Shown: one piece after another, positions 29,583-29,751 of the stretch
Position numbering within the stretch: the stretch's first letter is position 1
How the letters are laid out: each line of letters opens with the position of its first letter
Assembly (NCBI GenBank): GCA_022627495.1
Contig: JAKEGJ010000029.1
Coordinates: 1 to 64,000 of the forward strand
Length of the DNA stretch: 64,000 bases
Reading direction: 5' to 3'
Source of the DNA: Microcaldota archaeon
GTDB lineage: Archaea; Micrarchaeota; Micrarchaeia; Anstonellales; Bilamarchaeaceae
The notes under the pieces: generated by a model
What the model was told of the DNA's origin: nothing
Databases searched by the model: none
What the model saw: only the letters and a program-made list of their open reading frames with translations
Program-made: the position numbers and the translations under genes

Positions 29583-29751
29583 TGCCGCAGGCCTGATTTG
29601 AACAAGCGACCCCACCGTGACTGCGCCTTTAACAGAAGGCGGCTCAAAACGGGTCTCCAAACCCACTGAGAGTCTTCAGCTTCACAGGTTCATTTAGTCA
29701 AACAATCCCTAATTGAACCGGGTGTGCTCTCCCAGGCTGAGCTACTGCGGC
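29583..29751 (-). tRNA. tRNA-Asn (GUU) candidate interrupted by two introns (~84 and ~11 nt)
   Basis: Acceptor GCCGCAG/CTGCGGC, D-arm GCTC-AGCCTGGGA-GAGC, T-arm GCTTG-TTCAAAT-CAGGC; CACC | intron | T-CTGTTAA-A | GGCGCAGTCAC | GGTG gives a 74-nt mature tRNA. Confidence 0.68.

What the first reader, a model, noticed from the sequence alone, without database searches (positions are those of the whole stretch)
29583..29751. tRNA-Asn reconstructed with two introns, one before the anticodon and one only ~11 nt
Seen directly: acceptor, D-arm and T-arm of one tRNA are present on the minus strand, but the anticodon region spans ~95 extra nt. The Asn loop CTGTTAA is present. Removing 84 nt after CACC and GGCGCAGTCAC after T-CTGTTAA-A leaves CACCT-CTGTTAA-AGGTG and a 74-nt tRNA-Asn(GUU). 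The long intron carries a GGTTCA-A-TTAG...CTAA-A-TGAACC hairpin. The remaining intron edges (CGCCT/AGGCG) pair around the anticodon, so one splice may depend on the other. Archaeal tRNAs with several non-canonical introns are established; an intron at 30/31 together with an 11-nt one would be unusual.
Basis: partly seen in the sequence, partly recalled or inferred. Interest (0 to 1): 0.8.

Follow-up and report, generated by a model that had tools for sequence, protein, structure and literature searches.

The report
tRNA-Phe introns with neighbouring homing endonuclease
The interrupted tRNA gene is a phenylalanine tRNA with two introns, not an asparagine one, and beside it lies a DNA-cutting 'homing' enzyme gene of a kind that, across this archaeal phylum, sits next to particular tRNA genes and may be what spreads introns and altered sequence into them.

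Summary
The 169-nt interrupted tRNA is real, but it is tRNA-Phe(GAA), not tRNA-Asn. Intron 1 is 40 nt at position 30/31, with a textbook bulge-helix-bulge that covaries in 17 orthologous genes. Intron 2 is 55 nt at the canonical 37/38. CTGTTAA is the loop of a hairpin inside intron 2 and is not conserved. The genome's tRNA-Asn(GUU) lies on another contig.

The larger find is 14 bp upstream: a free-standing LAGLIDADG endonuclease ORF (two intact motifs; predicted fold like I-DmoI). In its family (Micrarchaeota, probably Bilamarchaeaceae) this endonuclease or a relic of it occurs beside tRNA-Phe in 8 of 17 genomes with the 30/31 intron and in 0 of 19 without it. Across 296 genomes of the phylum, related endonucleases abut tRNA genes, often ending inside them, and their tree sorts by tRNA isotype. 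Where the enzyme adjoins a tRNA-Phe without the 30/31 intron, the D-arm is recoded (5/5, against 1/28 without the enzyme).

Best reading: tRNA-specific homing endonucleases whose own tRNA allele is made uncleavable by an intron or by D-arm changes, and which spread with it by co-conversion. Cleavage and homing are untested. Archaeal tRNA-intron gain has no established mechanism; this offers a testable one.

The parts
29583..29751 (-). tRNA-Phe(GAA) gene with two introns (exons 29721-29751, 29674-29680, 29583-29618)
   Evidence: Spliced product is a 74-nt tRNA-Phe(gaa) by ARAGORN; orthologs in the genus, family and order are tRNA-Phe
29681..29720 (-). Intron 1, 40 nt, position 30/31; central helix CACA/UGUG (exon nt 25-28 with intron 3' end), bulges CC^C and AA^G
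   Evidence: BHB geometry and covariation (CACA/UGUG, CACU/GGUG, CACU/AGUG) in 18 genes
29619..29673 (-). Intron 2, 55 nt, canonical position 37/38; central helix CUGA/GCAG (three Watson-Crick pairs and one A-G mismatch), bulges AG^A and UC^A
   Evidence: orthologs range from no intron (G017, G029) to 113 nt
29624..29641 (-). Hairpin CGCCTT-CTGTTA-AAGGCG inside intron 2; source of the mistaken Asn anticodon loop
   Evidence: Sequence; loop not conserved in L067, L070, L077
29766..30401 (-). Free-standing LAGLIDADG homing endonuclease ORF, 211 aa, motifs CGIISGDGN and RGLFDTDGS
   Evidence: PF14528 E=4e-16; AlphaFold2 pLDDT 93.9 and best PDB match I-DmoI; absent at the corresponding locus in G008
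29777..29785 (-). TATA-like box TTATAAAAA at about -30 of the tRNA, coded inside the last codons of the endonuclease ORF
   Evidence: Same place in G022 and relics G005, G012, and in loci without the endonuclease such as G014

Best explanation
The locus is a tRNA-Phe(GAA) gene with two BHB introns (30/31 and 37/38), spliced by the tRNA-intron endonuclease, together with a free-standing LAGLIDADG homing endonuclease gene 14 bp upstream. Mechanism, inferred: the endonuclease recognises about 20 bp inside an uninterrupted tRNA-Phe gene, spanning roughly the 3' half of the D-stem to the anticodon loop, and cuts it. Repair from the endonuclease-bearing allele copies the nearby endonuclease gene and the tRNA's changed segment together, because they lie within about 60 bp. 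The resident tRNA is not cut because its target is broken, by an intron at 30/31 (here) or by recoding of the D-arm (other families). After fixation the endonuclease decays while the intron stays. Shown: isotype, intron positions, BHB covariation, endonuclease motifs and predicted fold, adjacency, isotype-sorted endonuclease tree, association with intron or recoded D-arm. Inferred: splicing, target, cleavage, co-conversion, intron mobility.
For: tRNA-Phe: orthologs, spliced product and BHB covariation, own tRNA-Asn elsewhere. Endonuclease: PF14528, motifs, I-DmoI-like model, codon-position differences 0.26/0.20/0.61 against G022, indicating protein-level constraint. Linkage in the family: endonuclease or relic beside tRNA-Phe in 8 of 17 genomes with the 30/31 intron and 0 of 19 without (Fisher p=0.003 without the second relic). 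The G008 locus lacks both endonuclease and 30/31 intron. Generality: tRNA within 1.5 kb of 21/53 stand-alone LAGLIDADG loci against 2/40 control loci; tRNA within 450 nt of 32/50 loci in other families. Tree of 71 endonucleases sorts by tRNA isotype: 17 changes, shuffled mean 52.8; Phe enzymes from three host families form one clade, support 97/84. D-arm: 5/5 altered beside the enzyme, 1/28 without; G213 and G255 differ, over the stretch compared, only by base pair 11-24. Same 30/31 geometry with endonucleases at tRNA-iMet and tRNA-Asn.
Against: No cleavage, homing or splicing data. Nine of 17 genomes with the 30/31 intron show no endonuclease or relic near the gene, which must be put down to later loss. 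In G011 the endonuclease is downstream and convergent. Outside the family, endonucleases adjoin tRNAs without introns, so an intron is not required. tRNA-Ala(CGC) shows no D-arm contrast, and one recoded tRNA-Phe has no endonuclease nearby (L294). The intron-2 central helix has one A-G mismatch. Fisher tests ignore shared ancestry. All genomes are metagenome-assembled.
Confidence: 0.7

Rival explanations
1. tRNA-Asn(GUU) with an 84-nt and an 11-nt intron.
For: ARAGORN makes this call on the precursor; the removed sequences leave a cloverleaf.
Against: Orthologs in the same genus are tRNA-Phe; GCTGAAG is present in every ortholog and CTGTTAA is not; A73 and acceptor are those of tRNA-Phe; own tRNA-Asn exists at G000:C24; the Phe parse has covarying BHB motifs.
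Confidence: 0.01
2. Host-defence reading: intron and D-arm changes were selected in the host as resistance to the endonuclease (the Randau and Soll idea for viruses and integrases), and the endonuclease does not carry the intron with it.
For: Explains why every endonuclease-bearing tRNA-Phe has an intron or a recoded D-arm, and why introns outlast endonucleases; the idea is in the literature for integrating elements (PMC4090602; PMC3293823).
Against: The isotype-specific tree across host families and the tight abutment, with the ORF often ending inside the tRNA, suggest that endonuclease and tRNA allele travel as one unit. This does not exclude the rival.
Confidence: 0.22
3. The LAGLIDADG protein is an isotype-specific splicing helper (maturase) for the neighbouring tRNA rather than a mobile endonuclease.
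For: LAGLIDADG maturases are known (general knowledge); enzyme clades match tRNA isotypes.
Against: Nine of 17 genomes have the 30/31 intron and no endonuclease nearby; many endonucleases adjoin intronless tRNAs; BHB introns are removed by the tRNA-intron endonuclease, present in all 43 family genomes; both LAGLIDADG motifs are conserved as in active nucleases.
Confidence: 0.04
4. tRNA genes are merely insertion hot spots, and the adjacency has no target specificity.
For: tRNA genes are common integration sites (PMC3293823; PMC3218864).
Against: Endonuclease phylogeny sorts by isotype, 17 changes against 52.8 by chance; D-arm recoding goes with the endonuclease; only 1/20 intein loci and 1/20 EndA loci have a tRNA nearby.
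Confidence: 0.03

Closest known systems
Archaeal BHB tRNA introns at non-canonical positions (Thermoproteales, Micrarchaeota, Asgard)
   Same: Introns bounded by bulge-helix-bulge motifs, several per tRNA, non-canonical positions; a tRNA-intron endonuclease of about 400 aa, in size like the epsilon2 type, is in the genome
   Different: Here the 30/31 intron is statistically tied to an adjacent LAGLIDADG gene
Free-standing phage homing endonucleases and intronless or collaborative homing (T4 SegB between tRNA genes; MobE trans homing), reviewed in PMC2988022
   Same: Endonuclease gene outside any intron, next to its presumed target; co-conversion of flanks expected; a host promoter embedded in the endonuclease gene has a parallel there
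   Different: LAGLIDADG rather than GIY-YIG or HNH; cellular archaeal chromosomes; one enzyme clade per tRNA isotype; target inferred inside the tRNA rather than between tRNAs; introns are protein-spliced BHB introns
I-DmoI and other archaeal rRNA-intron LAGLIDADG endonucleases
   Same: Same predicted fold (TM-score 0.6-0.76), two motifs in one chain
   Different: Those are coded inside rRNA introns; these are outside the intron, beside tRNA genes, and only about 20% identical
Caldiarchaeum tRNA-Thr(GGU) heterogeneity (PMC3293823)
   Same: An 813-bp ORF of DNA-binding/recombination type immediately adjacent, same strand, to a tRNA copy that gained an extra 24/25 intron; seven paralogs
   Different: Its authors attributed it to an integrase-type or transposable element; whether that ORF is LAGLIDADG was not testable here

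Membership tests
tRNA-Phe(GAA) | Cloverleaf with GAA anticodon after splicing | tested here: met
   ARAGORN tRNA-Phe(gaa), 74 nt
tRNA-Phe(GAA) | Orthology to tRNA-Phe genes of relatives | tested here: met
   pattern found in 35 of 43 family genomes, all read as tRNA-Phe
tRNA-Asn(GUU) | Anticodon loop CUGUUAA conserved in orthologs | tested here: not met
   Absent from orthologous loci; own tRNA-Asn is elsewhere
Archaeal BHB intron | Two 3-nt bulges separated by a 4-bp helix, cut after the second bulge nucleotide | tested here: met
   Intron 1: met with covariation. Intron 2: relaxed, 3 of 4 pairs
Archaeal BHB intron | Excised in vivo by the tRNA-intron endonuclease | not testable with these tools
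   Enzyme genes present; no RNA data
LAGLIDADG homing endonuclease | LAGLIDADG domain, two motifs with acidic residues, characteristic fold | tested here: met
   PF14528; invariant G23 D24 G25 and D122 T123 D124 G125; I-DmoI-like model
LAGLIDADG homing endonuclease | Site-specific DNA cleavage | not testable with these tools
   No assay available
Free-standing or collaborative homing system | Endonuclease gene outside the intron and close to its target gene | tested here: met
   14 bp upstream of the tRNA; general across the phylum; that the tRNA is the target is inferred
Free-standing or collaborative homing system | Target broken in alleles that carry the endonuclease and intact in those that lack it | tested here: inconclusive
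   Association with intron or recoded D-arm for tRNA-Phe; target itself not mapped; no such contrast for tRNA-Ala
Free-standing or collaborative homing system | Transfer of endonuclease and intron by co-conversion | not testable with these tools
   Needs a homing assay

The most novel reading that the evidence does not exclude
Micrarchaeota carry a phylum-wide family of free-standing LAGLIDADG homing endonucleases, one clade per tRNA isotype, that cut tRNA genes and spread by co-conversion with target-breaking changes (BHB introns at 30/31, recoded D-arms), and so drive gain of tRNA introns.
Probability: 0.55. Interest if true: 0.9.

Novelty: new variant of a known kind. Interest (0 to 1): 0.8.

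Why it matters
How archaeal tRNA genes acquire introns is an open question: a 2014 review states that the mechanism of tRNA intron transposition is still unknown (PMC4090602), and a 2012 study says there was no direct evidence linking disrupted tRNAs to mobile elements (PMC3293823). An endonuclease family that tracks individual tRNA isotypes, and whose presence goes with an intron or recoded D-arm in its tRNA-Phe, makes this testable with purified proteins and a small set of DNA targets. It would also show essential tRNA genes used as homing sites in cellular chromosomes, and yields a set of natural endonucleases with distinct presumed tRNA-gene targets. Within the open-access library searched no report of it was found; subscription papers were not searched.

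Tried and rejected
Asn reading: rejected (orthologs, own tRNA-Asn). Splice interdependence through CGCCT/AGGCG: these bases are an intron-2 hairpin. Rfam at E<=10 finds no tRNA here because the introns break the model. ARAGORN's tRNA-Phe call at G000:C7:40081-40198 is a mis-read tRNA-Ser(CGA), so no second tRNA-Phe was found. One 5'-half Asn pattern in the own genome found nothing; a whole-tRNA search then found the gene. One pattern for tRNA-Ala was off by one and returned nothing; the corrected one showed no D-arm contrast. A PDB sequence search was uninformative; the fold search was informative. Whether the Caldiarchaeum ORF 'b' is LAGLIDADG could not be checked. tRNA-iMet and tRNA-Asn loci without an endonuclease were not surveyed, for lack of remaining genome searches.

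Full report
OBSERVATION.

WHAT THE tRNA IS. A 5'-half pattern found close orthologs in the same genus, family and order. They are tRNA-Phe(GAA), and several are intronless (GCCGCGGTAGCTCAGCCTGGGAGAGCACTCGGCTGAAGACCGAGGTGTCGCCGGTTCAAATCCGGCCCGCGGCA type). Our gene contains GCTGAAG at 29674-29680. Removing 40 nt after nucleotide 30 and 55 nt after nucleotide 37 gives a 74-nt tRNA-Phe(gaa) with a perfect anticodon stem. CTGTTAA is the loop of a hairpin in intron 2; the matching loops in G002, G012 and G013 read differently. The genome's tRNA-Asn(GUU), with a 37/38 intron, is at G000:C24:12370-12523. An apparent second tRNA-Phe is a tRNA-Ser(CGA).

SPLICE SITES. In all 18 genes with the 30/31 intron (17 genomes; one has two copies), exon nucleotides 25-28 pair with the intron's last nucleotides before the bulge. 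The pairs are CACA/UGUG, CACU/GGUG or CACU/AGUG, which covary, and the bulges always have the form NN^N and AA^G. Intron 1 is therefore a proper BHB intron without much outer helix. Intron 2 has the canonical place and a relaxed central helix (CUGA/GCAG). The genome encodes a 401-aa tRNA-intron endonuclease and a second of 171 aa. The large one resembles in size the epsilon2 enzyme of Micrarchaeum, whose structure explains acceptance of non-canonical bulges (PMC12397907). Splicing itself is inferred.

THE NEIGHBOUR. ORF 29766-30401 (minus) is a LAGLIDADG_3 protein with two motifs, predicted with high confidence (pLDDT 93.9) and closest in fold to I-DmoI. Its codon-position differences against G022 show protein-level constraint. 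It ends 14 bp before the tRNA. Its last codons contain TTATAAAAA, at the place where relatives without the endonuclease also have a TATA-like box, so the endonuclease gene probably carries the tRNA's promoter (inference).

LINKAGE TO THE INTRON. In the family (43 genomes), endonucleases of this clade lie directly beside tRNA-Phe in G000, G022, G025, G028 and G063 (upstream, same strand) and G011 (downstream, convergent), with relics in G005 and G012. All eight have the 30/31 intron; none of 19 genes without that intron has an endonuclease or relic (Fisher p=0.003 with seven). The count of 17 intron-bearing genomes includes G039, from another family of the order. G008 shows the locus without insert: shared flank, then about 70 bp, then a tRNA-Phe without the 30/31 intron. 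The ladder of intact, relic and absent endonuclease, with the intron persisting, fits the usual homing cycle.

GENERALITY. With a custom interrupted-tRNA finder, 21 of 53 stand-alone LAGLIDADG loci had a tRNA within 1.5 kb, against 1/20 intein loci and 1/20 EndA loci. Inspection raises this to about 32 of the 53, the rest being mostly rRNA-intron endonucleases or a separate group of about 330-345 aa. In 50 loci from other families of the phylum, 32 had a tRNA within 450 nt by the strict finder, more by eye. Many endonuclease ORFs run into the tRNA and use nucleotides 8-10 (TAG or TGA) as stop codon. A tree of 71 endonucleases sorts by the isotype of the neighbouring tRNA: 17 label changes (minimum 15), shuffled mean 52.8. 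Phe-linked enzymes from three host families form one clade, 97/84. Isotype labels were assigned by reading the sequences.

THE TARGET-BREAKING PATTERN. Among tRNA-Phe genes with an uninterrupted 5' half, five lie beside an endonuclease (G076, G188, G193, G213, G237) and all five have changed D-arms; of 28 flank-checked genes without one, 27 have the usual GCTC/GAGC (p=2.5e-5, uncorrected for ancestry). G213 and G255 (without), of one genus, differ over the displayed stretch only by the compensated pair 11-24. In the family of our window the D-arm is unchanged but the 30/31 intron is present. So every endonuclease-adjacent tRNA-Phe seen is altered between about nt 11 and 31. This suggests a target there. 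tRNA-Ala shows no such contrast. The 30/31 geometry recurs beside endonucleases of other clades at tRNA-iMet (G000:C20, G007, G015, G034) and tRNA-Asn (G112, G120).

COMPARISON. Free-standing endonucleases that home without introns are known from T-even phages, including SegB by tRNA genes, with collaborative homing proposed as an origin of mobile introns (PMC2988022). In archaea, LAGLIDADG genes are known inside rRNA introns. For archaeal tRNA introns the mechanism of gain is called unknown (PMC4090602). A Caldiarchaeum tRNA-Thr locus has a similar layout, an ORF adjacent to a tRNA that gained an intron (PMC3293823). I found no paper describing tRNA-flanking LAGLIDADG genes in archaea, within an open-access library only.

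LINEAGE. Named relatives are Micrarchaeota MAGs. The genus includes isolate LFW-283_2, which I recall as Candidatus Bilamarchaeum dharawalense (from memory; taxonomy).

LIMITS. All sequences are MAGs; G063 has two tRNA-Phe copies on different contigs; some flanks are cut by contig ends; association tests ignore phylogeny; nothing biochemical was tested.

Noticed in passing
window 20391-20489 (-): tRNA-Arg(TCG) with a single short intron near 37/38; in relatives G004, G023, G062 a LAGLIDADG gene abuts this same tRNA, here none was seen in the 200 nt upstream.
   Followed up: partly
L130 (G000:C20:45899-49095): A second own LAGLIDADG gene lies upstream of initiator tRNA-Met that also has a 30/31 intron (37 nt) with the same BHB geometry.
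   Followed up: partly
L067, L084, L014, L090, L091, L027, L030: Several relatives carry a further intron in the T-loop of tRNA-Phe (about 59/60), so some tRNA-Phe genes have up to three introns.
   Followed up: no
L202, L205 (own genome): An own Pro-type and a Gly-type tRNA have long insertions in the D-loop region; most own tRNAs found are interrupted.
   Followed up: no
L114, L129, L113, L102, L103, L109, L117, L120, L121: A separate group of stand-alone LAGLIDADG_3 proteins of about 330-370 aa that are not next to tRNA genes; role unknown.
   Followed up: partly
L112, L115, L116, L122, L045, L270, L271: LAGLIDADG genes inside what look like rRNA gene introns in relatives, expected from published archaeal rRNA introns.
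   Followed up: no
L203 (G000:C7:40081-40198): ARAGORN with introns calls tRNA-Phe(gaa) for what reads as tRNA-Ser(CGA); automatic isotype calls on interrupted tRNAs of this phylum are unreliable.
   Followed up: yes
L094, L095, L093 (G064, G018, G030): In one genus the large tRNA-intron endonuclease gene lies within about 1 kb of tRNA-Phe.
   Followed up: no
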